From: Nitrospira sp. | GTDB lineage: Bacteria; Nitrospirota; Nitrospiria; Nitrospirales; Nitrospiraceae | DNA length: 12,528 bases | Assembly: GCA_015904055.1 (NCBI GenBank) | Contig: JABMDE010000022.1 | Location: forward strand, 1 to 12,528 | Reading direction: 5' to 3' | Shown: positions 1-12,528 of the stretch, in pieces | Layout: every line of letters begins with the position of its first letter | How positions within the stretch are numbered: position 1 is the first letter of the stretch | Made by a program: the position numbers and the translations under genes | Notes under the pieces: generated by a model | What the model saw: only the letters and a program-made list of their open reading frames with translations | Told to the model about the DNA's origin: nothing | The model's database searches: none

Positions 1-560
1 TGCTGGCCGGTTGTGATGGCCTGTGTGACCTCCACGGCTTCGGACCCGATATCCTGTCCAAACAGAAGCCGCCAGATAATTGAAAGGGTGAGTTGAGTCA
101 TTTCCTGGCTGATGTCGATCGTAACGCCGTTCTGCCAGCTATCGGCGAGGGCAGCGGATTTTTCAGCGATGAGTCCGGCATACGAATTAACATGGTCCCC
201 ATGGAAGAAGGGGAGAAACAATCGGCGCTGATGGTGATGGGCTGCTCCTTCTGCGTGCAGCACCCCCTGTCCGAAGATGCGAGATTCGACCGGAGGGACA
301 GGCGCTTTTGTATAGTTGTTTTGATTGGCGACCAGCACGTGCCTGACGTCAGCTGGATGGTTCAGCAGATACATGGCTGGGTCTGGTTCGCGTACGAGCA
401 GTCCGGCGATTCGGCCCATTGGAATCTTGACGACATCGCCATAGGCATGACAACACAGCAGAAAGCCGAGGCAGTCCCGGCGAAATTCAGAAAAGAACCC
501 GAACCAGCGGGATACCGGCGGGCCAGAGAGAGGCATGGATTGAAGCGCGTTGCTGGTCAT
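1..560 (-). CDS. Cytochrome P450, N-terminal part (runs off the left edge)
   Basis: The minus strand is open from an ATG at 560 to the window edge, about 186 codons. Typical P450 N-terminal landmarks appear in order: a proline-rich start (LSGPPVSRW), FRRDCLGFL, AYGDVVKIPMG, NHPADVRHVL, NYTKAP, FGQGVLHAEG, then HHHQRRLFLPFFH, which resembles the C-helix WRRQRR..PAFH region. These are followed by ISQEMTQLTL and LFGQDIGSEA. P450s are haem monooxygenases of about 450 residues. The I-helix, ExxR and the haem-ligand Cys lie outside the window, so activity cannot be judged. The conserved C-helix Trp is replaced (AHHHQRR). I chose ATG 560 because GAGG lies 8 nt upstream; an in-frame ATG at 596 is possible, with a stop just before it. 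The gene is divergent from the membrane-protein gene at 924. The substrate is unknown. Confidence 0.85.
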   Translation of the reverse strand, partial: MTSNALQSMPLSGPPVSRWFGFFSEFRRDCLGFLLCCHAYGDVVKIPMGRIAGLLVREPDPAMYLLNHPADVRHVLVANQNNYTKAPVPPVESRIFGQGVLHAEGAAHHHQRRLFLPFFHGDHVNSYAGLIAEKSAALADSWQNGVTIDISQEMTQLTLSIIWRLLFGQDIGSEAVEVTQAITTGQ

Positions 561-923
561 GCGACAGGCCTCGTGGGCGCGGGGAGCATACTGCATTGCC
601 CCGTAGTGCTGTCAATGCTCGATCTCGAAACAATGCGCATACAGGTTTTGATCGAGGCCAGCAGCTAAAATCCGAACTGACGCGGTCTACTATTCAGGGA
701 AATGAAGTGCGTCGTGTATCGCTCAGCGGCGCAACGTACCGAATTAAGCAGGTTCAGACGAATTTCCCGTTGACGCCTTCGTCCTGATATGGGTACCCTG
801 CAAAGCTTACAACGTGAGTGTGGCTGGCAGCCGTCATCCATTGCAACATGGACGAGAACTTTGGTGGGCAACGATCTGCGTGATTTGATATCGACGGTCT
901 GTCGATCGAATTGAAGGAGGGCT
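561..923. other. Intergenic region between P450 and membrane-protein genes
   Basis: No gene is recognised in this 363-bp divergent spacer. From about 717 to 923 it matches the region upstream of the second membrane-protein copy (about 2476-2696), with blocks such as GAATTTCCCGTTGACGCCTT and CTGATATGGGTACCCTGCAA shared. The duplication therefore includes upstream DNA and probably the promoter. The left part, up to about 715, has no clear match in the other copy. Confidence 0.55.
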
Positions 924-1205
924 ATGCAAGAGTACGGGCTCTATTGGTCAATCGTGTGTTTGATTCTTGCGGTGTATGTGTTGGTCAAGGGGGTGACCGC
1001 TGCGATTCGCCGGCGTCAACTTGGTTCCGACTCGTTGATCCCTCCTCCAGCCTATGGAATCGCGGCGTCGATGTTGCTGACGTTTGGGTTGGGGTTTTTA
1101 AAACTTGAATTGCCCTGGTGGGGCTATCGGATGGTATTTCCCGGCACGGCGTTTCTGTTTTTTGGCATCATTTATATGATCGGCCGCCGGCCAGCGGCGG
1201 CATGA
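924..1205 (+). CDS. Small membrane protein of unknown function, copy 1 (93 aa)
   Basis: This 93-residue protein has about three hydrophobic segments (roughly residues 7-25, 44-61 and 70-87), separated by a basic loop (RRRQLGSDS) and a LELPWWGYR loop. It is probably an inner-membrane protein, and I do not recognise the family. The start is well supported: AAGGAGG ends three bases before the ATG, and this context is kept in the second copy at 2697. Differences from that copy are few and mostly conservative, so this frame, not the overlapping one, is the coding one. The stop codon at 1203-1205 directly abuts the stop of the convergent PilZ gene, with no gap. That tight pairing is kept in copy 2 and suggests the two genes have travelled together for a long time. 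Confidence 0.8.
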   Translation: MQEYGLYWSIVCLILAVYVLVKGVTAAIRRRQLGSDSLIPPPAYGIAASMLLTFGLGFLKLELPWWGYRMVFPGTAFLFFGIIYMIGRRPAAA

Positions 1206-1562
1206 TTATGCGCGTCCGCTGATCGGCGCCATGTGTTTGCCGCGCAGCACTCTTGCCTCAAGCTGTTGAATCGCTCCTTCCAACAGTTCCTGATGCGGGG
1301 AGGCAAGGGATGGAAACTCGATGCCGATTGCCCCTGCCCCGGACCAACGCACAACGGCGCCTTGAATAACAATAGGCGTCGTACTATCGGGAAGTGTAAG
1401 CAGAAGATCCACCTTCATCCCGGTAAAAGCAGGACAGGTACTTTGGATACGGCACCCTCTGCGGGAGAGATCGAGCGATTTGCTGATTGCGTGGCGCTCC
1501 CTTCGGTGAATGAGAGTTCCAGAAAAGGAAGCATGAAATCGCGGATGTTGCCGTACAATCAT
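1206..1562 (-). CDS. PilZ-domain protein, copy 1 (118 aa)
   Basis: This is a stand-alone PilZ domain, a family whose members bind cyclic-di-GMP. The two ligand-binding motifs are present: RxxxR as RQHPR at residues 4-8, and D/NxSxxG as DLSRRG at 31-36. The usual late strands follow (AVVRWSG, then IGIEF). Nothing else is attached, so it is probably a small cytoplasmic receptor or adaptor whose output is unknown. GGAG lies 6 nt before ATG 1562. It differs from its paralogue at 2979-3335 at about nine residues, with both motifs unchanged. Its first 11 codons and upstream region form the 99-bp repeat also found at 7707-7805. Upstream it now faces a truncated fibronectin-type gene instead of the divergent PilZ partner seen in the other copy. 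Confidence 0.88.
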   Translation of the reverse strand: MIVRQHPRFHASFSGTLIHRRERHAISKSLDLSRRGCRIQSTCPAFTGMKVDLLLTLPDSTTPIVIQGAVVRWSGAGAIGIEFPSLASPHQELLEGAIQQLEARVLRGKHMAPISGRA

Positions 1563-1968
1563 GGTTTACTCCAGGGGAAAGTGTGACACGGGGTATCCCT
1601 GCATTCCTTGTGCCGATCTGATGCTGACGTGGAGGGGGTGGTGGGGAGCCTGCCGGGGTGTAGGTAACCACAGCACTCTCGCGTGATTCATTATTGGCAA
1701 GGTCATATGCCGTCAGGACATAGTATTGCGTCACTGCCGGAGTGCCGATGTTGAAGTTGGTCACTCGTCCCAATGTGGTAAGCAAGGACGTGGAACCAAA
1801 TGTGCGGCCACAGGGAAGCTGTGAGCATCGGTAGACACGGTATCCTGCAAGGTCGGGCTCACCGTTCGCAGTCCAGGTCAATGTTGCGCCCCATGCCGTG
1901 GCGCTCCAGAGGAGCAATCCTGTTGCGATTGCGCACATTCGACTTGTTGAGCGACTCGGACCGTTCAT
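1384..1968 (-). CDS. Secreted fibronectin-III-like protein, 3' end replaced (chimeric)
   Basis: From ATG 1968, with AAGGGA six bases upstream, the frame encodes a signal peptide (hydrophobic stretch AIATGLLLWSATAWG, residues 13-27). A fibronectin type III-like domain follows (ATLTWTANGEPDLAGYRVYR, then VTQYYVLTAYDLANNES, residues 28 to about 105) and a proline run (SPPPPP). Such a run normally links to a further domain. Here, at about residue 114 (position 1628), the frame enters the upstream region of the PilZ gene and continues about 80 residues out of frame through that gene's 5' half, stopping at 1384. The natural C-terminus is therefore lost. Exported FnIII domains usually serve adhesion or carbohydrate contexts; the role here is unknown. 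It is probably a broken gene whose transcription may read into PilZ. Confidence 0.6.
   Translation of the reverse strand: MNGPSRSTSRMCAIATGLLLWSATAWGATLTWTANGEPDLAGYRVYRCSQLPCGRTFGSTSLLTTLGRVTNFNIGTPAVTQYYVLTAYDLANNESRESAVVTYTPAGSPPPPPRQHQIGTRNAGIPRVTLSPGVNHDCTATSAISCFLFWNSHSPKGAPRNQQIARSLPQRVPYPKYLSCFYRDEGGSSAYTSR
1530..1628 (+). repeat. 99-bp exact direct repeat, left copy
   Basis: This stretch is identical, base for base by eye, to 7707-7805. It covers the first 11 codons of the minus-strand PilZ gene and about 66 bp upstream. Outside it the two sites diverge at once: PilZ coding DNA versus DUF1338/VOC remnant on one side, and the FnIII gene versus the divergent PilZ spacer on the other. 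A third, diverged version lies at about 3303-3401. The pair brackets the segment 1629-7706. Confidence 0.9.
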
Positions 1969-2696
1969 ACTGATTCCCTTTGTAGTAGTGCTAATTTGTC
2001 GATGCATCATCGGGACGAGCTTCCTCGATAAACTGGGTTTCCTTTTGCTGTCATCTGTCTGGGTAGGGTCCGCAGATGTATGGCGCGCGAGAAACAATCT
2101 GAGCGGATAACAAAGCAAGGCATGTGCCAGTGCTATCGCATGTCTGTGCAGTGATAATGTGGCTGTTTTCGACTCTGAAACCTACCGATCATGAGTTCCG
2201 ATTTAGGTGACGTAGTAAACGGCCTTCACATTCCAGTGCTGATCATCGTGTTTCTCTGCTGTTAGCGTGTGTAGGAGACGGGATACGTTTTAACAGTCAG
2301 TCGTACGAGATGTAGTACATCAATAGGCAGGCTGAGGTGCTCCGTGCTGTCAATTCGCGTTGAGGATCGAGTTTCTTAGAAGCGTCTTGCCGACGAGTGA
2401 GAAGAAGCCCTCGATCAATCGTACGGAACAGTGTTCTTTGGCTGAGTGGTAAGCAATTTCGTCAGAGATGGTTTGATATGGCTCAGCGGTTCAACGTATG
2501 GAAGCAATAGGCTCGGATGAATTTCCCGTTGACGCCTTTGTCCTGATATGGGTACCCTGCAAAGCCTGCAATGTGAGTGTTCTTGGCAGCAGTTCTCGGG
2601 CAGCTGTCATCCATAACAACATGGGCGAAAGCTCTGGCAGGCAACGGCCTGTGTAACGTGATACCGAAGGTCTGTCGATCGAATTGAAGGAGGTTT
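1969..2696. other. Long intergenic region without a recognisable gene
   Basis: I see no credible gene in these 728 bp; stop codons are frequent in all frames between about 2100 and 2470. The leftmost part holds the ribosome-binding site, and presumably the promoter, of the FnIII gene at 1968. From about 2476 the sequence parallels 717-923 upstream of the first membrane-protein copy, with small insertions (for example around 2586-2606). This marks the start of the duplicated cassette. Confidence 0.55.
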
Positions 2697-2978
2697 ATGC
2701 AAGAGTACGGGCTCTATTGGTCAATCGTGTGTTTGATTCTGTCGGTGTATGTGTTGGTCAAGGGGGTTACCGCTGCGCTTCGTCGACGTCAACTTGGTTC
2801 CGACTCATTGATCCCTCCTCCAGCCTATGGAGTCGCGGCGTCAATGTTGCTGACGTTTGGGTTGGGGTTTTTAAAACTTGAATTGCCCTGGTGGGGCTAT
2901 CGGATGGTATTTCCCGGCACGGCGTTTCTATTTTTTGGCATCATTTATATAATCGGCCGCCGGCCATCGTCGACATGA
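2697..2978 (+). CDS. Small membrane protein of unknown function, copy 2 (93 aa)
   Basis: This is the paralogue of the 924-1205 gene and has the same length. Changes are limited to a few conservative positions (for example Ala16 to Ser, Ile28 to Leu, Ile46 to Val) plus the last three residues (SST instead of AAA). The three hydrophobic segments and the PWWGYR loop are unchanged. AAGGAGG precedes the ATG with the same short spacing. Its TGA again touches the stop codon of the convergent PilZ gene at 2979. The function is unknown. Conservation of reading frame and hydrophobic pattern after nucleotide divergence argues that the protein is still selected in both copies. Confidence 0.8.
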   Translation: MQEYGLYWSIVCLILSVYVLVKGVTAALRRRQLGSDSLIPPPAYGVAASMLLTFGLGFLKLELPWWGYRMVFPGTAFLFFGIIYIIGRRPSST

Positions 2979-3335
2979 TTATGCACGCCCGCTGATCGGC
3001 GCTGAGTGTTTGCCGCGCAGCACTCTTGCCTCAAGCTGTTGAATCGCCCCTTCCAGCAGTTCCTGATACGGGGAGGTCAGGGATGGAAACTCAATACCGA
3101 TTCCCTCTGACCCTGACCAACGTACAACGGCGCCTTGAATCACAATAGGAGTCTTGCTGTCGGGAAGCGTAAGCAGCAGATCCACTTTCATCCCGGTAAA
3201 AGCAGGACAGGTGCTTTTAACACGGCACCCTCTGCGGGAGAGATCTAGGGATTTGCTGATGGCGTGGCGTTCTCTTCGGTGAATGAGAGTTCCGGAAAAG
3301 GACGCATGAAATCGCGGATGTTGCCGTACAATCAT
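2979..3335 (-). CDS. PilZ-domain protein, copy 2 (118 aa)
   Basis: This is a single-domain PilZ protein with RQHPR (residues 4-8) and DLSRRG (31-36), the two cyclic-di-GMP contact motifs, followed by VVRWSG and IGIEF. It is paralogous to 1206-1562. Substitutions such as Ile-Gln to Val-Lys after DLSRRGCR, Gly-Ala to Ser-Glu, and Met to Ser near the C-terminus all lie outside the binding motifs. GGAG is placed six bases before ATG 3335. It is divergent from the second PilZ gene at 3492 across a 156-bp AT-rich spacer. This is probably the ancestral arrangement, because the same spacer and partner also occur at 7740-7893. Confidence 0.88.
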   Translation of the reverse strand: MIVRQHPRFHASFSGTLIHRRERHAISKSLDLSRRGCRVKSTCPAFTGMKVDLLLTLPDSKTPIVIQGAVVRWSGSEGIGIEFPSLTSPYQELLEGAIQQLEARVLRGKHSAPISGRA

Positions 3336-3491
3336 GGTCTACTCCAGGGGAAGGTGTGACATAGGGAGTATGCCTGCATTCCTTGTGCCGATCTGACACC
3401 GACAGAACACTCGAATTTATCAAGTATTATCAAATATATTGCACGTTTATGCGCAGTGACGTAGATTGGACTCGCTCATTCCTGGACAACC
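3336..3491. promoter_or_regulatory. Divergent PilZ-PilZ promoter region with tandem 10-bp repeat
   Basis: The 156-bp spacer separates two divergent PilZ genes. It contains an AT-rich core with two adjacent 10-bp units, TATCAAGTAT (3418-3427) and TATCAAATAT (3428-3437). The homologous spacer at 7820-7839 keeps the pattern as TGTCAAATTT and TATCAAACAT, although surrounding bases differ more. A repeat on one helical turn between divergent genes is a reasonable regulator site or intrinsically curved promoter DNA. I could not place convincing -35/-10 pairs. Confidence 0.4.
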
Positions 3492-3836
3492 GTGAAGGCG
3501 ATTTGGAACAGGCTCATGAATCCCGCTATTGAAAAGCGCAAGTACCCGCGCCATCCGGTTACGATTCAAAGTGTCTTTTCCTCCGGCCCCATCAGAGGGG
3601 AAGAAGGGACCATTCTCGATCTCTCGTATGAAGGGTGCCGGATTTGTTCTTCCATAGTGCCGGCTCCGGAATCAATGATTGAGATTCAAATCAAGCCACG
3701 CCAGGGCCCGCCCGTTTTTGTTCCCAAAGCGGTTGTTCGGTGGACAGGTGAGTCGGCCTTTGGAGTTGAGTTTAAAGCAGTAGCAGGCTATGAATCGAGT
3801 AAGTTGACTCGATTACTTTCGGTAGCTACCGCGTAG
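3492..3836 (+). CDS. PilZ-domain protein, plus-strand type (114 aa, intact copy)
   Basis: This second kind of stand-alone PilZ protein has RxxxR as RKYPR (residues 16-20), DLSYEG (43-48), and the late strands VVRWTG and FGVEF. It is a likely cyclic-di-GMP receptor; its partner is unknown. The start is GTG at 3492. The decayed copy has ATG at the aligned base (7894), which supports this start over the in-frame ATG at 3516. It is divergent from the PilZ gene ending at 2979 and lies 56 bp upstream of prfC in the same direction, so co-transcription with prfC is possible. This is the only working version of the gene in the window, since the other copy carries a nonsense codon and a frameshift. Confidence 0.87.
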   Translation: MKAIWNRLMNPAIEKRKYPRHPVTIQSVFSSGPIRGEEGTILDLSYEGCRICSSIVPAPESMIEIQIKPRQGPPVFVPKAVVRWTGESAFGVEFKAVAGYESSKLTRLLSVATA

Positions 3837-3886
3837 AAATATTTCGACGACCGGTCGCTGCTTCTTCCCCCGCCCATCGTTCACAG

Positions 3887-3892
3887 TATGAT
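3887..3892 (+). promoter_or_regulatory. Possible -10 element (TATGAT) at the prfC start, copy 1
   Basis: TATGAT lies directly before the first ATG of prfC and is kept in the other copy at 8287-8292. No good -35 hexamer is visible and no Shine-Dalgarno precedes either candidate ATG. If the element is real, transcription would begin near 3899, giving an almost leaderless message that starts at the ATG at 3908. Confidence 0.2.
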
Positions 3893-5512
3893 ATGCTGCA
3901 CGGCGCTATGACTACCGATACCTCTCTTCTCCCTGAGTTGTCCGCGGCGACTGCGCGGCGGCGAACGTTTGCGATCATCAGCCATCCAGATGCCGGTAAA
4001 ACCACGTTAACGGAAAAGTTGTTGCTATACTCCGGACTGATCCGGACAGCCGGCATGGTGCGGGGACGCAAAGGCGGCAAGGCAACGGCGTCCGATTGGA
4101 TGGGCATGGAGCAGGAGCGCGGCATCTCGATCACCGCCTCGGCCATGCAATTTCCTTATAAGCATGCGGTGATCAATCTTCTGGATACCCCAGGCCACCA
4201 GGACTTTTCCGAAGATACGTATCGGACGCTGACGGCCGCCGATAGTGCCATCATGGTCATCGATGCCGCGAAGGGAGTGGAGGCACAAACACGCAAGCTT
4301 TTTGCTGTCTGCCGTCTGCGGCGTATTCCGGTTCTCACCCTGATCAATAAGATGGATTTGCCTGGCCGTCCCTCGCTCGACTTGATGACTGAAGTGGAGC
4401 AGGCCTTAAACATTCATGCCAGCGCGGTGAATTGGCCGATCGGATCGGGAAGCGAGTTCGTCGGGATTGTGAATCGAGAAAACAGTCATGTGGAACTGTT
4501 CAGCCGGACCGCTCATGGCGGGGCGACCAAGGTGGATGTTGCGACCATGGCATTGGCAAACCTTGCACAGAGCGGCAGGGTTTCGCAGGAGGTTCTAGAC
4601 CAGGTTCAGCATGATTTGGAGCTACTGGAGATTGCCGGAAATCCATTCGATCGAGAATTGTTTCTCCAGGGGGAGGTCACTCCGGTGTTTTTCGCGTCGG
4701 CTCTGACGAATTTCGGCATCGAGAGTTTCCTGGATGCCTTTGTGAAGCTGGCGCCATCTCCCGGTGCACGGCCGGCTGATGCCGAGAATGGAGCCGAGCT
4801 CTCCATCAACCCGGTCGAACGACCGTTCAGCGCCTATGTGTTCAAGCTGCAAGCCAATATGAACCCCAAGCATCGAGACAGTACGGCATTTCTGCGGGTC
4901 TGCTCCGGACGATTCGAGCGGGATATGCTGGTCAAGCATCATCGCCTCGGCCGGGAAGTCCGCCTTTCCCGGCCGCATAGTCTCGTGGCGCAGGAACGGA
5001 GTACAGTCGAAGAGGCCTTTCCCGGCGATATCATCGGCATCATCAATCCGGGGTTATTTGCCATCGGCGATACCATTTCAACGACCGGAGGATTCAACTT
5101 CAAGCCCTTGCCGCAGTTCCAGCCGGAGATTTTCGCACGTATCCGCCCAAGCGACGTTGGTAAACGGAAACCGTTCGATAAAGGCATGTGGCAGATGGCG
5201 CAAGAGGGAACCGTTCAGATTCTGCACAGTCTGCATGATCAAGAGCCCTTGGTCGCTGCGGTCGGACGGCTCCAATTCGACGTGCTGCAATATCGGCTGC
5301 GGTCCGAATACCGTGTCGAGACCGTGCTGGATCAGCTGCCGTTTACCTGCAGCGCATGGTTGGAGGGCGATCCCGCGACATTCAAGCCGCCGTCCGCCTC
5401 GATGACTGTCAAGGATCAACGAGGTCGTGTCGTTGTGCTCTTCGGCGATCAGCTCATGAAAACCATCGCGCGGGATCGGAATCCTGGACATACTCTCCGA
5501 GACATGGGCTGA
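3893..5512 (+). CDS. prfC: Peptide chain release factor 3 (RF3), copy 1
   Basis: RF3 is a translational GTPase that releases RF1 and RF2 from the ribosome after termination. The 539 residues match the family length (about 530), and E. coli-like landmarks are all present. They are the P-loop HPDAGKTT (31-38), SDWMGMEQERGISIT (switch I region), DTPGHQDF (98-105), NKMD (152-155) and the NWPIG segment. Domain II/III signatures follow (VFKLQANMNPKHRDS, RIRPSD, GRLQFDVLQYRL), with a C-terminus resembling other RF3s. The start is uncertain: ATG 3893 gives the full frame, while ATG 3908 (MTTDTS) is closer to the E. coli N-terminus. Neither has a clear ribosome-binding site. A second complete RF3 lies at 8293-9912, about 96% identical (about 20 differences by my count). 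It is downstream of a PilZ gene and upstream of the secreted-protein gene. Confidence 0.96.
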   Translation: MLHGAMTTDTSLLPELSAATARRRTFAIISHPDAGKTTLTEKLLLYSGLIRTAGMVRGRKGGKATASDWMGMEQERGISITASAMQFPYKHAVINLLDTPGHQDFSEDTYRTLTAADSAIMVIDAAKGVEAQTRKLFAVCRLRRIPVLTLINKMDLPGRPSLDLMTEVEQALNIHASAVNWPIGSGSEFVGIVNRENSHVELFSRTAHGGATKVDVATMALANLAQSGRVSQEVLDQVQHDLELLEIAGNPFDRELFLQGEVTPVFFASALTNFGIESFLDAFVKLAPSPGARPADAENGAELSINPVERPFSAYVFKLQANMNPKHRDSTAFLRVCSGRFERDMLVKHHRLGREVRLSRPHSLVAQERSTVEEAFPGDIIGIINPGLFAIGDTISTTGGFNFKPLPQFQPEIFARIRPSDVGKRKPFDKGMWQMAQEGTVQILHSLHDQEPLVAAVGRLQFDVLQYRLRSEYRVETVLDQLPFTCSAWLEGDPATFKPPSASMTVKDQRGRVVVLFGDQLMKTIARDRNPGHTLRDMG

Positions 5513-5862
5513 TCTTCTCAACCCGTCTCCGCTCTGACGCGATACCGTCCCGCCGGTTAGTTGAAACTCCCATGATTGCCTCACCATTCAGATTCCAAGT
5601 AGGATAACGGTCCACTGAGTTGGTCTTGTATGTGTCGGCTGGAAAAGGCACTTACTATAAAGGGTGAGCGTGTCAATGTGGACACGACGCGAGTGCGGAG
5701 ACCATGTGCCAAGTGGAGGAGTGTTGATCCGACGATGAATCCTACCAGGCCAAGCTCGACAGCGAGGGAAAACAAGACGCGGAAAGGAACCGGTCTGCAC
5801 GGTAAACGATGATCAAACGCGTACTACTATCCACACTTCAAGAAAGAAGACGGGGACCTCTC
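5513..5862. other. 350-bp intergenic region between prfC and the secreted-protein gene, copy 1
   Basis: No convincing gene is seen. Short open frames here are not maintained in the equally long region 9913-10262, where single-base indels shift them. The region holds a conserved inverted repeat at 5669-5686 just after a TATAAA-like stretch (5656-5661). The ribosome-binding site GGGGA lies before ATG 5863. The conserved spacing argues for a separate promoter for the secreted-protein gene. Confidence 0.45.
5669..5686. promoter_or_regulatory. Inverted repeat, possible operator (copy 1)
   Basis: CGTGTC and GACACG form a 6-bp dyad around AATGTG, eight bases downstream of TATAAA. The other copy (10070-10087) keeps both arms while the loop changes to GATGTG. 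This could be an operator or a small hairpin in the leader of the secreted-protein transcript. It has no T-tract, so it is not a typical terminator. Confidence 0.3.
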
Positions 5863-7140
5863 ATGCGAGTGTGGTTCATCATACTGGCGCTGGTGATCTT
5901 TGCGACCCCAGACGTCTTTGCGGCGTCTTCGCAAGTCGAGATCGTGAAAAATCAGGCCCAAGTCGGTACGCGGTACTTTGATCCTAATAGTCCGCCGGGC
6001 GATCGCCCACCGCTCAGGGGATCCGAAGAGGCGGTATGTGTCGGGGATTTCCTCTCCGATACGTCAATCGGTGGCCAGGTCGGGCAGATCGATTCGACGC
6101 ATGCGAAGGTGACGATCAACCGGATTAAAGTGACGCTGCAACTCAACGTCACGACCTGGCTGCCGAATAATCCACGGAAGTGGACTGTTGAACATGAAGA
6201 AGGGCATCGGCAGATTTCGGAATATTACTATCGGAATGCCGACGTGGTTGCCAGGCGCGTGGCAGAGCCGTACATCGGCAAGATGTTCGAAGTCAGCGGC
6301 CCGGATTTACGTCAAGCCTTAAACGCGGCGATCGATACATTCGCGAAAGAAATCACCAATGAGTACAACCGGCAGATGCCGGTCGAAACGACACAGGATA
6401 GGTACGATGCCATCACGGAACATAGTCGAAAAGAGATTTCGATACCGGATGCCGTCGCCCGGGCGTTGCAGGAAACCTATCCAGAGGCGGCCAAGCCAGC
6501 CGTGGCGCTCGTCGACTCTCCTGAATATCTGGCCTGGAAGAATTTCAGACCTGGTGCAAAGGTTGTGTATGCCGCTCGGTATTGGAACCTGGCCAGCACG
6601 AACAAATTCATGGTCGGTCCGATTACTTCTCTCAAGGCCTATCAGTTGCGGGGCATCAATGCGGAGGGTGTTAAGCTGTGGTTCAGCGAAGCTCCCACTG
6701 ATCGGTATGGGAGGCCCATGCCTCCGAATGAATGGGAAGAAACCATCGCCGCTCAGTATAATTCCAATGTCGGCCTGTCGGTGAATCAATCCCGCTCCGC
6801 CCAACTGCTGACGATCTATCATCAAGCCGGCAATCTTGCGATGGGTGTCCAACCAACCCCCCGACCAATTGAATCCGGTGAAGATACGATCGAGGTCAAT
6901 GGCGCGCGGATTGCGACGCAGTGGGAGTCCACTACGTATGAGTATGATACGTCGGTGTGGCCGACCTTCAAAAATTGCCGCCTCGTTATCAAGCTCTGGA
7001 CGAGCGACGCCGTGCCGACGGGCTTGGTTCGCAAGACCGAAGAGAGAACCTGCCCGCTGGGCGGGGATCAGTTGCCGCGAATCATGGTTGAAACGTATCT
7101 CCAGTCATTCGAAGGGTTTACGCCGGCGGCGAGCAAGTGA
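5863..7140 (+). CDS. Secreted HExxH (DUF922-like) putative metalloprotease, copy 1 (425 aa)
   Basis: The protein has a signal peptide (hydrophobic residues 3-19, cleavage likely near VFA-A at 20-21). The N-terminal domain contains WTVEHEEGHRQISEYYY, with a zinc-type HExxH motif at 111-115, and further on TQDRYDAITEHSRKE (177-191). The combination of W..xHExGH and YDxxTxH resembles the DUF922 putative zinc-protease family; His187 is a candidate third ligand. From about residue 215 a separate domain begins (YLAWKNFRPGAKVVYAARYW) and runs to the end; I do not recognise it. The likely location is periplasmic or exported. I preferred ATG 5863 over the in-frame ATG 5809. GGGGA lies eight bases upstream, and the extension is frameshifted in the other copy, where the gene also has 425 codons. 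Protease activity is inference only. Confidence 0.75.
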   Translation: MRVWFIILALVIFATPDVFAASSQVEIVKNQAQVGTRYFDPNSPPGDRPPLRGSEEAVCVGDFLSDTSIGGQVGQIDSTHAKVTINRIKVTLQLNVTTWLPNNPRKWTVEHEEGHRQISEYYYRNADVVARRVAEPYIGKMFEVSGPDLRQALNAAIDTFAKEITNEYNRQMPVETTQDRYDAITEHSRKEISIPDAVARALQETYPEAAKPAVALVDSPEYLAWKNFRPGAKVVYAARYWNLASTNKFMVGPITSLKAYQLRGINAEGVKLWFSEAPTDRYGRPMPPNEWEETIAAQYNSNVGLSVNQSRSAQLLTIYHQAGNLAMGVQPTPRPIESGEDTIEVNGARIATQWESTTYEYDTSVWPTFKNCRLVIKLWTSDAVPTGLVRKTEERTCPLGGDQLPRIMVETYLQSFEGFTPAASK

Positions 7141-7316
7141 GCTGACGGGGAGTGGATGTGTCGCGTTGTGGGGGAATAAACGCGGACATTCTACTTTCTT
7201 GCTTGCCAGACGTACTTGCGAGGATTGAAGCACGGGAAAAGGGGCCAGGCTACTTTTCTGGAGAGCTGCAAGGTCGCCCGCGCGAGCGTTATGAGGATGC
7301 CACGCACAGAGGGAGA
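7141..7316. other. Intergenic region with a 64-bp insertion relative to copy 2
   Basis: The region separates the secreted-protein gene from the convergent DUF1338/VOC remnant. It aligns with 11541-11652 except for about 64 extra bases at 7227-7290. No gene is seen. Confidence 0.5.
7227..7290. repeat. 64-bp insertion with REP-like inverted repeat
   Basis: This stretch is absent from the paralogous site at about 11629. It contains AAAAG and CTTTT arms around GGGCCAGGCTA (about 7237-7257), then a GC-rich palindromic stretch (CGCCCGCGCGAGCG). The arm pattern resembles short sequences I associate with REP/RAYT-type elements in environmental bacteria. Without a database search this is only a suggestion; there is no transposase nearby. 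Confidence 0.35.
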
Positions 7317-7706
7317 TCAGCGTGGTGCGGTCGATCTCATGAGGCTGTCGGCTTGCGGCGGCAGGAAACCGAGATAGCCGCGATGTCGTTCTGCCAGCTC
7401 TATCGTTCTGCCAGCTCTAAGACAGAGAACGGCTGGCCGTCGACAGTCTCAGGGGCAGAAAAGATTTGACGGAGATGGTCTCCGCGGTTTCCGACAATAT
7501 TTCCGGCGAAGACGACGCCGTTTTGTTTGAGCTGCTCGACGGCCTTCTCAATATCTTCGACCCGTACCGCGATGTGGTGAAAGGTCTGGTCGCCGAATTT
7601 CTTGACCCAGCCGGGGATGATACTGGTTTTCCCTCGATCGTCGCGATAGGCCTGATCGACAAACAGCGCCGGGTATCCGGCCTTCCGATAGACCTTGGCA
7701 TACCAG
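7317..7706 (-). pseudogene. DUF1338/VOC-type protein remnant, 5'-truncated and frameshifted
   Basis: This is the paralogue of the intact gene at 11653-12249. Homology begins at the residue equivalent to Trp76 and is then nearly continuous (WYAKVYRKAGYPALFVDQAY, FHHIAVRVEDIE, FSVLELAER). The first 75 residues are gone, including the metal-binding-type His in the DHLTIR motif. In their place is the 5' end of a PilZ gene at 7707-7739. A 17-bp tandem duplication (7386-7402 and 7403-7419) places a TAG directly after LELAER and shifts the remaining C-terminal codons. A frame of about 111 codons (7400-7735, TTG start inside the PilZ fragment) could still be read, but the product would lack a key ligand. 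I regard it as non-functional. Confidence 0.8.
7386..7419. repeat. 17-bp perfect tandem duplication
   Basis: TCGTTCTGCCAGCTCTA occurs twice in a row, at 7386-7402 and 7403-7419. The intact gene has a single, slightly different version near 11724. The extra 17 bases break the 3' part of the DUF1338/VOC remnant. Confidence 0.9.
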
Positions 7707-7805
7707 AGCATGAAATCGCGGATGTTGCCGTACAATCATGGTTTACTCCAGGGGAAAGTGTGACACGGGGTATCCCTGCATTCCTTGTGCCGATCTGATG
7801 CTGAC
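7707..7805 (+). repeat. 99-bp exact direct repeat, right copy (PilZ 5' fragment)
   Basis: This is identical to 1530-1628. It carries only the first 11 codons of the minus-strand PilZ gene (ATG at 7739) and its upstream region, fused on the left to the DUF1338/VOC remnant. To the right it continues into the native divergent spacer and the broken plus-strand PilZ gene. It therefore looks like the retained half of a split native locus. Confidence 0.9.
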
Positions 7806-7819
7806 TGAGCACTGAAACT

Positions 7820-7839
7820 TGTCAAATTTTATCAAACAT
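7820..7839. promoter_or_regulatory. Tandem 10-bp repeat in the PilZ spacer, native copy
   Basis: TGTCAAATTT and TATCAAACAT sit side by side, matching the two TATCAA units at 3418-3437. The spacing of the TCAA cores is exactly 10 bp in both copies. Confidence 0.35.
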
Positions 7840-7893
7840 ATTCAATGTTTACATGTGATGACGAAGATTGGCTCTGCTCATTCCTGGACATCC

Positions 7894-8236
7894 ATGAAGG
7901 CGATTTCAAACAGTCTGATGAATCTCACTATTGAAAAACGCAAGTAACCGCGCCATTCCGTCACGATTCAAATGGTCTTTTCCTCCGGCCACATCGGAGG
8001 CGAAGAAGGGACTATTCTCGATTTCTCATATGATGGGTGCTGGATTTTTTCTTCAATAGTGCCGACTCCGGAATCAATGAGTGAGATTCAACTCAAGCCA
8101 CGCCAGGGCCCGCCTGTTTTTGTTTTCAAGGCGGTTGTTCGGTGGACAGGCGAGTCGGCCTTTGGCGTGAGTGTAAAGCTAAGCAGGCTATGAATCGAGC
8201 ACACTGAGTCGATTGCTTTCCATATCCACTGCATAG
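7894..8236 (+). pseudogene. PilZ-domain protein, plus-strand type (decayed copy)
   Basis: This is homologous to the intact gene at 3492-3836. It starts with ATG 7894 but meets TAA at 7945-7947 (codon 18, Tyr in the intact copy), inside the RxxxR motif. The rest of the domain is still readable (GTILDFSYDGC, VVRWTGESAFGV). A net 2-base loss near 8166-8190 then shifts the frame, giving a premature TGA, whereas the original stop would align at 8234-8236. Two independent lesions make sequencing error unlikely. Re-initiation at ATG 7972 would give about 73 residues without the first ligand motif, so function is doubtful. Confidence 0.85.
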
Positions 8237-8286
8237 AAATATTCCGATGACCGGTCGCTGCTTCTTTGTCCGCCCATCGTGCTCAG

Positions 8287-8292
8287 TATGAT
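8287..8292 (+). promoter_or_regulatory. Possible -10 element (TATGAT) at the prfC start, copy 2
   Basis: The hexamer and its position relative to both candidate ATGs are the same as at 3887-3892. As there, no Shine-Dalgarno and no good -35 are seen. Confidence 0.2.
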
Positions 8293-9912
8293 ATGCTGCA
8301 CGGCGCTATGACTACCGATACCTCTCTTCTCCCTGAGTTGTCCGCGGCGACTGCACGGCGGCGAACGTTTGCGATCATCAGCCATCCCGATGCCGGTAAA
8401 ACCACGTTGACGGAAAAGTTGTTGCTGTACTCCGGACTGATCCGGACAGCCGGTATGGTGCGTGGGCGCAAGGGCGGCAAAGCCACGGCATCCGATTGGA
8501 TGGGCATGGAGCAGGAGCGCGGCATCTCGATCACCGCCTCGGCCATGCAATTTCCCTATAAGCATGCGGTGATCAATCTTCTCGATACCCCCGGCCATCA
8601 GGATTTTTCTGAAGATACGTATCGGACGCTGACGGCCGCCGACAGCGCCATCATGGTGATCGATGCCGCCAAGGGAGTGGAGACGCAAACACGTAAGCTC
8701 TTTGCCGTCTGCCGTCTGCGGCGCATTCCGGTTCTCACGCTGATCAACAAGATGGATTTGCCTGGCCGTCCCCCACTCGACTTGATGACTGAAGTGGAGC
8801 AGGCCTTAAACATTCATGCCAGTGCGGTCAATTGGCCGATCGGATCGGGGAGCGAGTTCGTCGGGATTGTGAATCGAGAGAACAGTCATGTGGAGCTGTT
8901 TAGCCGGACCGCCCATGGCGGGGCGACCAAGGTGGATGTTGATACCATGGCATTGGCAAACCTTGCACAGAGCGGAAGGGTTTCGCAGGAAGTTCTGGAA
9001 CAAGTTCGGCACGATTTGGAGCTGCTGGAGATTGCGGGAAATCCCTTCAGTCGAGAGGCCTTCCTCCAAGGGGATGTGACGCCGGTCTTCTTCGCGTCAG
9101 CCCTCACCAATTTTGGCATCGAGAGTTTCTTGGATGCTTTTGTCAAGCTGGCGCCATCTCCTGGGGCACGGCTAGCCGATGCCGAGAATGGAGCTGAACT
9201 GTCCATCGACCCGATCGAACGACCGTTCAGTGCCTATGTGTTCAAGCTGCAAGCCAACATGAACCCCAAACATCGCGACAGTACGGCATTTCTACGGGTG
9301 TGTTCCGGACGATTTGAGCGGGATATGCTAGTCAAGCACCATCGCCTCGATCGGGAGGTCCGCCTTTCCCGTCCGCATAGTCTCGTGGCGCAGGAACGGA
9401 GCATGGTGGAAGAAGCTTTTCCTGGCGACGTCATCGGCATCATCAACCCCGGCCTATTTGCCATCGGCGATACGATTTCGACGACCGGAGGATTCAATTT
9501 CAAGCCCTTGCCGCAGTTTCAACCAGAGATTTTTGCGCGCATCCGCCCAAGCGATGTTGGTAAACGCAAATCTTTCGATAAAGGCATGTGGCAGATGGCG
9601 CAAGAGGGAACGGTTCAGATTCTGCACAGTCTGCACGATCAAGAGCCCTTGGTTGCTGCGGTCGGACGGCTCCAATTCGATGTGCTGCAATATCGGCTGC
9701 GGTCCGAATACCGTGTCGAGACTATGCTGGATCAGTTGCCGTTTACCTGCAGCGCATGGCTGGAGGGCGATCCCGCAACATTCAAGGCCCCGTCGGCGTC
9801 CATGATCGTCAAAGATCAGCGTGACCGCATCGTCGTGCTCTTCGGCGATCAGCTTATGAAAACGATCGCACGGGATCGGAACCCCGGACATACCCTCCGA
9901 GACATGGGCTGA
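8293..9912 (+). CDS. prfC: Peptide chain release factor 3 (RF3), copy 2
   Basis: This is a complete second RF3 with every GTPase motif of the first copy unchanged (HPDAGKTT, DTPGHQDF, NKMD) and the same length from the aligned ATG at 8293. The frame stays open upstream to 8266, but that extension has no counterpart in the other copy, so I did not use it; ATG 8308 is a further alternative. The roughly 20 residue changes are scattered and mostly conservative. The densest cluster is QEVLEQVRHD to FSREAFLQGDV. Most nucleotide differences look synonymous, which points to purifying selection on both genes after divergence. The upstream PilZ gene is broken, so this copy probably relies on its own promoter. 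Two RF3 genes in one genome are unusual. Confidence 0.96.
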   Translation: MLHGAMTTDTSLLPELSAATARRRTFAIISHPDAGKTTLTEKLLLYSGLIRTAGMVRGRKGGKATASDWMGMEQERGISITASAMQFPYKHAVINLLDTPGHQDFSEDTYRTLTAADSAIMVIDAAKGVETQTRKLFAVCRLRRIPVLTLINKMDLPGRPPLDLMTEVEQALNIHASAVNWPIGSGSEFVGIVNRENSHVELFSRTAHGGATKVDVDTMALANLAQSGRVSQEVLEQVRHDLELLEIAGNPFSREAFLQGDVTPVFFASALTNFGIESFLDAFVKLAPSPGARLADAENGAELSIDPIERPFSAYVFKLQANMNPKHRDSTAFLRVCSGRFERDMLVKHHRLDREVRLSRPHSLVAQERSMVEEAFPGDVIGIINPGLFAIGDTISTTGGFNFKPLPQFQPEIFARIRPSDVGKRKSFDKGMWQMAQEGTVQILHSLHDQEPLVAAVGRLQFDVLQYRLRSEYRVETMLDQLPFTCSAWLEGDPATFKAPSASMIVKDQRDRIVVLFGDQLMKTIARDRNPGHTLRDMG

Positions 9913-10262
9913 TCTCCTCAACCCGTCGCCGCCCTGACGCAATAGCAGCCCACCGGCCTAGTTGAAACTCCCAGGATTGCCTCACCATTCAGATTCCAAG
10001 TAGGATAAAGGTCCACTGAGTTGGTCTTGTGTTTATCGGCCGGAAAAGGCACCTTCTATAAAGGGTGAGCGTGTCGATGTGGACACGACGCTAGTGCGGA
10101 GACCATGTGCCAAGTTGAGGAGTGTTGATCCGACGATGATCCCTACTCGGACAAGCTTGACATCGAGGGAAAACAAGGTGCGGAAAAGAACCCGCCTGCA
10201 CTGTAAGCGATGATCGAACGCTTACACTATCCACCCTTCAAGAAAGAAGACGGGGACCTCTC
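9913..10262. other. 350-bp intergenic region between prfC and the secreted-protein gene, copy 2
   Basis: It has the same length as the region at 5513-5862 and aligns along its whole length with scattered substitutions and compensating small indels. No gene is seen. It keeps the dyad at 10070-10087 and the GGGGA ribosome-binding site before ATG 10263. Confidence 0.45.
10070..10087. promoter_or_regulatory. Inverted repeat, possible operator (copy 2)
   Basis: CGTGTC and GACACG surround GATGTG. The arms match 5669-5686 while one loop base differs. The dyad lies just after a CTATAAAGG stretch, as in copy 1. Confidence 0.3.
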
Positions 10263-11540
10263 ATGCGAGTGTGGTTCATCATATTGGCGCTGGTGATCCC
10301 TGCGATCCCAGACGTCTTTGCGGCGCCTTCGCAAGTCGAGATCGTGAAAATTCCGGCCCAAGTCGGCACGCGGTACTTTGATCCCAATAGTCCGCCGGGC
10401 GATCGCCCACCACTCCTGGGATCCGAAGAGGCGGTATGTGCCGGGGATTTCCTCTCCGATGCGTCTGTCGGCGGCCAGGTCAGGCAGACCGATGCGACGC
10501 ATGCGAAGGTCACGATCAACCGGATTAAAGTGACGTTACAACTCAACGTCACGACCTGGCTACCGAATAATCCACAGAAGTGGACTGTTGAACATGAAGC
10601 AGGGCATCGGCAGATTTTGGAATATTACTATCGGAATGCCGACATGGTTGCCAGGCGCGTGGCAGAGCCGTACATCGGCAAGATGTTTGAAATCAGCGGC
10701 CCGGATTTACGTCAAGCCTTGAACGTGGCGATAGATACATTCTCGAAAGAAATCACCAATGAGTACAACCGGCAGATGCCGGTCGAAACGACACAGGATA
10801 GGTACGACGCTATTACGGAACATAGTCGAAAAGAGATTTCGATATCGGATGCCGTCGCCCAGGCGTTGAAGGAAACCTATCCGGAGGCGGCCAAGCCAGC
10901 CGTGGCGCTCGTCGACCGTCCTGAATACCTGGCCTGGAAGAACTTTAGACCCGGTTCGAAGGTTGTGTACGCCGCTCGGTACTGGAATCTGGCCGGCCCG
11001 AACAAATTCGTGGCCGGTCCGATCACTTCTCTCAAGGCCTATCAGTTGCGGGACATCAACGCGGAAGGCGTCAGGCTGTTGTTCAGCGAAGCTCCCACTG
11101 ATCGGTATGGGAGGCCCATGCCTCCGAATGAATGGGAAGAAACCATCGCCGCTCAGTATGATTCCAACGTCAGCCCGTCGGCGAATCAATCCCGTTCTGC
11201 CCAACTGCTGACGATTTTCCATCAAGCCGGCAATCTTGCGATGGCTGTCCAATCAACCCCCCGACCGATTGAAACCGGCGAAGACACGATCGAGGTCAAT
11301 AGCGCGCGGATTGCAACGCAGTGGGAGTCCGCTACGTATGAGTATGATACGTCGGTGTGGCCGACCTTCAAAAATTGCCGCCTCGTCATCAAACTCTGGA
11401 CGAGCGACGCCGTTCCGACGAGGTTGGTTCGCAAGACCGAAGAGAGAACCTGCCCGCTGGGCGGGGATCAGTTGCCGCGAGTCATGGTTGAAACGTATCT
11501 CCAGTCGTTCGAGGGGGTTACGCCGGCGGCGAGCAAGTGA
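10263..11540 (+). CDS. Secreted HExxH (DUF922-like) putative metalloprotease, copy 2 (425 aa)
   Basis: This is the paralogue of 5863-7140, about 90% identical (about 44 differences by my count), so it evolves faster than the adjacent prfC pair. The signal peptide, the HExxH motif (HEAGH here, HEEGH in copy 1; residues 111-115) and YDAITEHSRKE are retained. Changes concentrate in the signal peptide, the first 80 residues and the C-terminal domain, for example around the NSNVGLSVN segment. The ATG at 10263 has GGGGA eight bases upstream; no longer in-frame start is available. The function is unknown beyond a possible exported zinc peptidase. It is followed convergently by the intact DUF1338/VOC gene. 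Confidence 0.77.
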   Translation: MRVWFIILALVIPAIPDVFAAPSQVEIVKIPAQVGTRYFDPNSPPGDRPPLLGSEEAVCAGDFLSDASVGGQVRQTDATHAKVTINRIKVTLQLNVTTWLPNNPQKWTVEHEAGHRQILEYYYRNADMVARRVAEPYIGKMFEISGPDLRQALNVAIDTFSKEITNEYNRQMPVETTQDRYDAITEHSRKEISISDAVAQALKETYPEAAKPAVALVDRPEYLAWKNFRPGSKVVYAARYWNLAGPNKFVAGPITSLKAYQLRDINAEGVRLLFSEAPTDRYGRPMPPNEWEETIAAQYDSNVSPSANQSRSAQLLTIFHQAGNLAMAVQSTPRPIETGEDTIEVNSARIATQWESATYEYDTSVWPTFKNCRLVIKLWTSDAVPTRLVRKTEERTCPLGGDQLPRVMVETYLQSFEGVTPAASK

Positions 11541-11652
11541 GCCGGAGGGGGAGCGGAAGTGTAGCGCTGTGGGGGATACACGCAGACATGCTACATCTCT
11601 TGGTTGCCAGCCCAACTTGTGAAGATATGAAGATGCCACGCACGGCGCGAGA
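11541..11652. other. Short intergenic region between convergent genes
   Basis: These 112 bp separate the 3' ends of the secreted-protein and DUF1338/VOC genes. No clear hairpin with a T-tract is visible. The region lacks the 64-bp insertion seen in the paralogous site. Confidence 0.4.
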
Positions 11653-12249
11653 TCAGCGCGGCGCGGTCGATTTCATAAGACTGTCGGCTTGCGGAGGCAG
11701 GAAGCCAAGATAGCCGCGATGCCGTTCCGCCAGTTCTAAGACGGAGAACGGTTGGCCGTCGACGGTCTCAGGGGCAGAAAAGATTTGCCGGAGACGGTCT
11801 CCGCGGTTTCCGACAATATTTCCAGCGAAGACGACGCCGTTCTGTTTGAGCCGCTCGACTGCCTGTTCGATATCTTCGACCCGTACCGCCACATGGTGAA
11901 AGATCTGGTCGCCGAATTTCTTGACCCAGCCGGGGATGATGCTGGTTTTCCCTCGATTGTCGCTATAGGCCTGATCCACAAAGAGCGCAGGGTATCCGGC
12001 CTTCCGATAGACCTTGGCATACCAGTCGTCGTACTCGAGCGTTTCATCGTAGGTATAGCCTAAGGCAACAAATGGTTCCGCTCCACGATCGATATCGAAC
12101 GTGCGGATCGTCAGATGGTCGATCACGGGGGAGAACCCGACCCCGGCATCGTCGAGCATGGTCTTCAGCAGTCCGGCCGCTCGATTATTCAGGACATAGT
12201 CGGCGACCATCCGTTCGATGAGGGAGTCCAATGCTGTGGCGTGATCCAT
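11653..12249 (-). CDS. DUF1338/VOC-type dioxygenase-like protein (possible 2-oxoadipate dioxygenase/decarboxylase relative)
   Basis: This 198-residue protein has an N-terminal helical part. It then carries DHLTIRTF (His45, Arg49), FHHVAVRVEDIEQAVERL (His118/119) and FSVLELAER (Glu172). A His/His/Glu arrangement is the metal site of VOC-fold enzymes. In HglS, the DUF1338 enzyme converting 2-oxoadipate to 2-hydroxyglutarate, I recall the first ligand His and a substrate-binding Arg four residues apart, as here. The protein is much shorter than HglS (about 460 residues), so it would belong to a compact branch or be another VOC protein. GGGAGG lies eight bases before ATG 12249. It sits 96 bp downstream of an ALDH7-type gene on the same strand, which fits a lysine or aminoadipate catabolic operon. 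The general fold is fairly sure; the substrate is inference. Confidence 0.7.
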   Translation of the reverse strand: MDHATALDSLIERMVADYVLNNRAAGLLKTMLDDAGVGFSPVIDHLTIRTFDIDRGAEPFVALGYTYDETLEYDDWYAKVYRKAGYPALFVDQAYSDNRGKTSIIPGWVKKFGDQIFHHVAVRVEDIEQAVERLKQNGVVFAGNIVGNRGDRLRQIFSAPETVDGQPFSVLELAERHRGYLGFLPPQADSLMKSTAPR

Positions 12250-12319
12250 GATAGCAACCTCCCGAATAGGATCGTCACGCGTTAGGCGTCAATCGAGAGA
12301 AGAAGCTGCTGGGCTGTTG

Positions 12320-12342
12320 CGAATGACGTGTGACGAATGACG
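12320..12342. repeat. Short direct repeat in the ALDH-VOC spacer
   Basis: CGAATGACG occurs at 12320-12328 and again at 12334-12342, just downstream of the aldehyde dehydrogenase stop codon. It may be a degenerate intergenic microsatellite. No regulatory role can be shown. Confidence 0.4.
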
Positions 12343-12345
12343 GCT

Positions 12346-12528
<183 letters not shown>

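What the first reader, a model, noticed from the sequence alone, without database searches (positions are those of the whole stretch)
1530..7805. Diverged second cassette inserted between exact 99-bp direct repeats
Seen: 1530-1628 and 7707-7805 are identical, while the paralogous genes inside and outside the bracket differ by several percent. Removing 1629-7706 plus one repeat restores the contiguous order seen inside the insert. Inference: the cassette copies diverged first, for example in another strain, and the insert was placed here later. A circular molecule carrying the 99 bp and recombining at the matching site would give exactly this structure. No integrase, transposase or terminal repeats are visible, so the route is unusual. 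Alternative: 99 is also a common assembler k-mer size, so a graph artefact joining strain variants must be excluded.
Basis: partly seen in the sequence, partly recalled or inferred. Interest (0 to 1): 0.72.

Follow-up and report, generated by a model that had tools for sequence, protein, structure and literature searches.

The report
Two-strain assembly chimera in Nitrospira
The odd "inserted second cassette" is most likely an assembly error that dropped a piece of the same chromosomal region from a sister Nitrospira strain into this one, because the 99-base repeats at its edges have exactly the length that common assemblers leave at contig ends.

Summary
In detail: 1530-1628 and 7707-7805 are identical and identity stops at once on both sides. 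The bracketed 1629-7706 is a colinear, about 10% diverged copy of the surrounding locus, an ordinary Nitrospira-like neighbourhood around prfC. The closest relative found, G094, has the locus once, uninterrupted. Of 175 family genomes, 84 matched prfC, none with two copies. The insert starts inside one gene (FnIII-like) and ends inside another (VOC). Its ends show no homology to the target, yet it lies in its own orthologous locus in the same orientation. The flanking 99 bp are of the outer type, not the insert's own diverged version. Transposition, Campbell integration and homologous recombination do not predict this combination. A scaffolding error does: 99 bp is the contig-end overlap reported for IDBA_UD (maxk 100) and for metaSPAdes or MEGAHIT at k=99, and false gaps despite overlapping flanks are described. 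I call it a two-strain assembly chimera (0.82), unproven without reads. Against it: no N at the joins, and complementary pseudogenes (outer PilZ2, inner VOC).

The parts
1530..1628 (.). first copy of the exact 99-bp repeat; 5' end of PilZ and the spacer upstream of it, outer type (A)
   Evidence: identical to 7707-7805, no extension
7707..7805 (.). second copy of the exact 99-bp repeat, outer type (A)
1629..7706 (.). inner segment B: a 6,078-bp colinear piece of the same locus from a diverged strain
   Evidence: self-blastn 87-90%; colinear with G094 from mid-FnIII-like to mid-VOC
1630..2118 (-).
   Evidence: relatives continue with a conserved short tail; Pfam none
2697..2978 (+). small hypothetical protein, copy B
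   Evidence: same length as 924-1205
2979..3335 (-). PilZ protein, copy B
   Evidence: counterpart of the outer PilZ
3303..3403 (.). B's own counterpart of the 99-bp segment, in place and uninterrupted
   Evidence: 9 mismatches and a 2-base gap against the 99 bp
3492..3836 (+). second PilZ protein (PilZ2), copy B, intact
   Evidence: Pfam PilZ
3893..5512 (+). prfC (release factor 3), copy B
   Evidence: Pfam RF3_C and GTP_EFTU
5809..7140 (+). protein with an HExxH-type motif (motif recalled), copy B
   Evidence: open frame; no Pfam family
7400..7706 (-). VOC gene of B: first 75 residues cut off at 7706, last 22 lost through a 17-bp tandem duplication at 7386-7419
3..596 (-). cytochrome P450 (partial), outer copy A
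   Evidence: Pfam p450
924..1205 (+). small hypothetical protein, outer copy A
   Evidence: no Pfam family
1206..1562 (-). PilZ protein, outer copy A
   Evidence: Pfam PilZ
7806..8240 (+). PilZ2 of outer copy A, a pseudogene (in-frame stop and two single-base deletions)
8293..9912 (+). prfC, outer copy A
   Evidence: 90.7% identical to copy B
10263..11540 (+). HExxH-type protein, outer copy A
11653..12249 (-). VOC (glyoxalase-like) gene, outer copy A, intact
   Evidence: Pfam Glyoxalase_4; exact protein listed on 2 contigs
12346..12528 (-). C-terminal piece of a probable aldehyde dehydrogenase (name recalled)
   Evidence: open frame, conserved next to VOC in relatives

Best explanation
The arrangement is an assembly chimera of two co-occurring, about 10% diverged Nitrospira populations, not a chromosomal insertion. 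Population A has one uninterrupted locus (P450, small protein, PilZ, decayed PilZ2, prfC, HExxH protein, VOC, dehydrogenase) whose assembly broke in the PilZ / PilZ2 spacer, leaving two contigs that overlap by 99 bp. They were scaffolded as if a gap lay between them, and a 6,078-bp piece of population B's version of the same locus, cut in the middle of two genes, was put into that gap. Shown: the exact 99-bp repeat, its outer type, B being a colinear fragment of the same locus, both B ends lying inside genes, and one uninterrupted locus in relatives. Inferred: the two populations, and the assembly step itself, since reads and assembler are unknown.
For: The repeat is exactly 99 bp with no extension. 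The COBRA authors report contig-end overlaps of maxK (metaSPAdes, MEGAHIT) or maxK-1 (IDBA_UD), and checked joins at 99 bp with k=99 or 100. Chen et al. describe gaps inserted although the flanks overlap, leaving duplicated sequence, and rare two-organism chimeras. Both insert ends lie inside genes whose relatives continue normally. The insert lies in its own orthologous locus in the same orientation; random landing there would be about 0.00065 for an assumed 4-Mb chromosome. The extra 99 bp is of outer type, not B type. No exact A/B match exceeds 86 bp, so at k=99 A and B would assemble apart. Relatives carry the locus once: prfC once in 7 of 8 loci inspected, absent in the eighth, and no second copy in the 84 of 175 family genomes that matched.
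Against: The joins carry no N, and no standard assembler step was shown to place a strain contig there; pure de Bruijn joins would need reads across both junctions. Outer PilZ2 and inner VOC are broken while their counterparts are intact, as after a real duplication with reciprocal loss. One contig elsewhere may hold two VOC variants. The source is not known to be a short-read metagenome; no genome is held for it. The copy-number search scored only two candidates per genome.
Confidence: 0.82

Rival explanations
1. Real insertion: a linear 6-kb fragment from a sister strain entered the cell, paired with its homologous locus, and was captured by end joining between nicks 99 bp apart, whose fill-in gave a 99-bp target duplication around a fragment with arbitrary ends.
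For: Explains arbitrary ends inside genes, the outer-type exact repeat, the own-locus landing and, if decay followed, complementary pseudogenes.
Against: Needs two non-homologous junctions although homology was at hand, and a duplication that happens to equal a common assembler overlap. Outer PilZ2 decay next to a still identical repeat means the decay came before the insertion or the insertion is very young. No relative shows anything similar.
Confidence: 0.1
2. Campbell-type integration of a circular molecule that carried the 99 bp; or an assembler walking through such a circle attached to the chromosome at the 99-mer.
For: A circle of 6,177 bp with the 99 bp would give this structure.
Against: B's own version of the segment is in the insert's interior and differs. 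The circle would have to carry an outer-type 99-mer between two cut genes. No replication, integrase or transposase gene was seen among the ten ORFs scanned. No match to the 1400-2500 stretch in plasmids or to the repeat's first 35 bases in viral contigs.
Confidence: 0.03
3. Old tandem duplication of the locus within one lineage, later kept identical over the 99 bp by gene conversion.
For: Same-orientation copies and complementary gene decay.
Against: The copies are nested, not end to end. prfC differs by 23.5% at third positions under strong constraint (118 synonymous, 20 non-synonymous codons), as between species. No second copy in the 84 of 175 family genomes matched. Conversion stopping exactly at both non-homologous edges is implausible.
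Confidence: 0.03

Closest known systems
Contig-end overlap of maxK or maxK-1 in short-read metagenome assemblies (COBRA, PMC10914622; passages seen)
   Same: a perfect repeat of exactly 99 bp at what would be contig ends
   Different: here foreign sequence lies between the two copies, and the assembler of the record is unknown
Scaffolding gap inserted despite overlapping flanks, and two-organism chimeras (Chen et al. 2020, PMC7111523; passages seen)
   Same: the overlap is duplicated on both sides of a false gap
   Different: the false gap holds 6 kb of a sister strain's locus instead of N
Homology-facilitated illegitimate recombination (PMC3240628; abstract seen)
   Same: foreign DNA joined at its homologous place with a non-homologous junction
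   Different: that process has one homologous and one illegitimate junction; here neither junction is homologous and the target is duplicated
Transposon insertion with target-site duplication (recalled)
   Same: direct repeats flank an insert
   Different: no transposase or terminal repeats seen, 99 bp is far longer than usual duplications (recalled), and the insert is a colinear piece of the target locus

Membership tests
k-length overlap assembly chimera | flanking repeat equals a known contig-end overlap length | tested here: met
   99 bp exact; reported lengths
k-length overlap assembly chimera | inserted piece is a strain variant of the same locus, cut at arbitrary points | tested here: met
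k-length overlap assembly chimera | no reads span the junctions; depth differs from the flanks | not testable with these tools
   no reads available
k-length overlap assembly chimera | record made by a short-read assembler with largest k of 99 or 100 | not testable with these tools
   no genome or assembly information held for the window
Transposon insertion | transposase or integrase gene in the insert | tested here: not met
   Pfam scan of ten ORFs, five of them with a large part in the insert, found none
Campbell integration of a circle | the repeat is the circle's own homologous segment | tested here: not met
   B's own segment is interior and differs from the flanking copies
Homology-facilitated illegitimate recombination | one homologous junction | tested here: not met
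   B's sequence at both junctions shows no homology to the adjoining target sequence

The most novel reading that the evidence does not exclude
A sister-species DNA fragment was captured with arbitrary ends inside its own orthologous locus, with a 99-bp target duplication: a homology-tethered but end-joined insertion that gives a bacterium a diverged second copy of a gene set in one step, without any mobile element.
Probability: 0.1. Interest if true: 0.6.

Novelty: not a real feature. Interest (0 to 1): 0.15.

Why it matters
As an artefact, it is a clear example of how a repeat of k-mer length and genes cut at both ends betray a two-strain chimera, and it warns against counting prfC or its neighbours as duplicated here. 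If it were real, it would show a way for bacteria to gain a diverged second copy of a locus in one step without a mobile element.

Tried and rejected
Looked for the first 35 bases of the repeat in viral contigs: none. Looked for 1400-2500 in plasmids: none. prfC in viral contigs gave three loci at 46-67% identity with partial coverage.

Asked whether the chimeric frame across the second junction (7400-7735) is known elsewhere: 88 proteins, none above 86% identity over 90% or more of the query, so not the chimera. This is inconclusive, because the window's own contig did not yield it either, so gene callers may skip it. No window-encoded entry appeared among the 120 listed of 327 hits for the FnIII-like fragment.

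Thought that G078 and G063 might have tandem cassettes because their HExxH gene and VOC lie more than 4 kb apart; each carries prfC once.

Complementary gene decay was weighed as evidence for a real duplication and judged weak: a PilZ2 orthologue was found in only 1 of 8 relative loci, and the adjacent repeats have not diverged at all.

In one search the VOC codon comparison was made in a wrong frame and is not used; the protein comparison of that call is used. Paper searches were seen as listings only; led to PMC7111523.

Full report
Observation. The two 99-bp stretches are identical and identity ends abruptly on both sides. Self-alignment splits the window into an outer copy A (1-1628 plus 7806-12528) and an inner copy B (1629-7706) of one locus, 87-90% identical in the aligned parts and in the same orientation. 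Copy A is interrupted in the spacer between PilZ and PilZ2; copy B is uninterrupted there (3303-3403).

What the locus is. Pfam gives cytochrome P450, PilZ (twice), RF3 (prfC) and glyoxalase/VOC; the FnIII-like frame, the small protein and the HExxH protein match no family at E 0.001. The three best prfC relatives among the GTDB species genomes are Nitrospira MAGs, 84-86% identical in protein. Against G094, copy B runs colinearly from the middle of FnIII-like to the middle of VOC; copy A runs from P450 to the dehydrogenase without FnIII-like, as G074 does too. Copy B prfC is 91% identical to G094 and 90.7% to copy A, so A, B and G094 look like sister species or strongly diverged strains. In prfC, A and B differ by 118 synonymous and 20 non-synonymous codons: both evolved as working genes.

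The ends of the insert. The left end cuts FnIII-like in its proline-rich tail. P0004, from a Nitrospira MAG (locus tag HP491_06680) and 98% identical over 89% of the query, and G094 continue with a short conserved tail that is missing here. The right end cuts VOC; copy A and G094 continue with the normal gene. At the right junction there is no base of microhomology when A and G094 stand in for B's natural continuation; at the left B's natural continuation is unknown and G094 shows none that is evident.

Why an artefact. A transposon would bring a transposase or terminal repeats and would not pick its own orthologous locus. A circle would bring its own version of the homology. Homologous replacement would replace, not add. 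End joining would land anywhere: about 0.00065 for this locus and orientation in an assumed 4-Mb chromosome. Joining of strain variants in assembly predicts an outer-type duplicate of k-mer length, arbitrary ends, and the same locus and orientation together. The COBRA authors state contig-end overlaps of maxK for metaSPAdes and MEGAHIT and maxK-1 for IDBA_UD, and in simulations with k=99, 99 and 100 checked joins at 99 bp (PMC10914622, passages seen). Chen et al. describe gaps inserted in scaffolding although the flanks overlap, leaving duplicate sequence, rare chimeras of two organisms, and related strains that confuse assemblers (PMC7111523, passages seen). Chen et al. give n for IDBA-UD and n-1 for metaSPAdes, the reverse of COBRA; by that wording 99 would need a largest k of 99 in IDBA-UD or 100 in metaSPAdes. 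I lean on COBRA because it names 99 bp for its runs.

Copy number in relatives. Of 175 family genomes, 84 match prfC at E 1e-50: 82 with one match, and G066 and G089 with two pieces that cover different parts of the query. Only two candidates per genome were scored, so a second copy could be missed. Of 8 loci inspected, 7 carry prfC once (L112 in two adjoining pieces) and L108 lacks it; none is tandem.

Evidence the other way. Copy A PilZ2 is a pseudogene (in-frame stop and two single-base deletions) while copy B PilZ2 is intact. Copy B VOC has lost its first 75 residues at the junction and its last 22 through a 17-bp duplication while copy A VOC is intact. This is what a real duplication with reciprocal loss would look like. 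But a PilZ2 orthologue was detected in only 1 of 8 relative loci, and the repeat next to decayed PilZ2 is still identical to its twin, so that decay cannot follow an old insertion. Also, the joins have no N, and the precise assembly step remains a guess.

Other contigs. The exact outer VOC protein (P0124) is listed on two contigs, the longest 41,228 bp. A 172-residue piece of it (P0136) is listed on a contig of 37,561 bp, and a 95% identical VOC (P0125, HP491_04485) with a contig of the same length. If that is one contig, it holds two VOC variants, one perhaps running off its end, since the piece starts at a CTG codon. This could be the same kind of chimera or a hint of a real duplication; I could not read it with the tools here. 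The copy-B VOC fragment has no match above 96% among the 331 proteins in hand apart from its own frame; 331 is only part of the hits.

Verdict: assembly chimera, confidence 0.82. The most novel reading not excluded is a homology-tethered capture of foreign DNA (0.1).

Noticed in passing
10882-11543: The 3' half of the HExxH-protein gene is 90-92% identical in six genomes (G112, G074, G069, G131, G136, G140), although in five of the six VOC is only 71-77% identical (G074: 89%); this part may move between Nitrospira genomes.
   Followed up: no
11653-12249: A 172-residue piece of the outer VOC (P0136) and a different, 95% identical VOC (P0125, HP491_04485) are both listed with a contig of 37,561 bp, so one contig elsewhere may hold two VOC variants.
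   Followed up: partly
7386-7419: A 17-bp tandem duplication in copy-B VOC brings an early stop and removes the last 22 residues.
   Followed up: yes
7806-8240: Outer PilZ2 is a pseudogene; an orthologue was found in only 1 of 8 relative loci.
   Followed up: yes
924-11540: Third-position divergence between copies A and B is uneven: 8.5% in the small protein, 10.1% in the HExxH gene, 21% in PilZ, 23.5% in prfC; the HExxH gene has as many non-synonymous (44) as synonymous (41) changed codons.
   Followed up: no
L112:8280-9831: prfC of G066 appears as two adjoining pieces, as if frameshifted or wrongly read.
   Followed up: no
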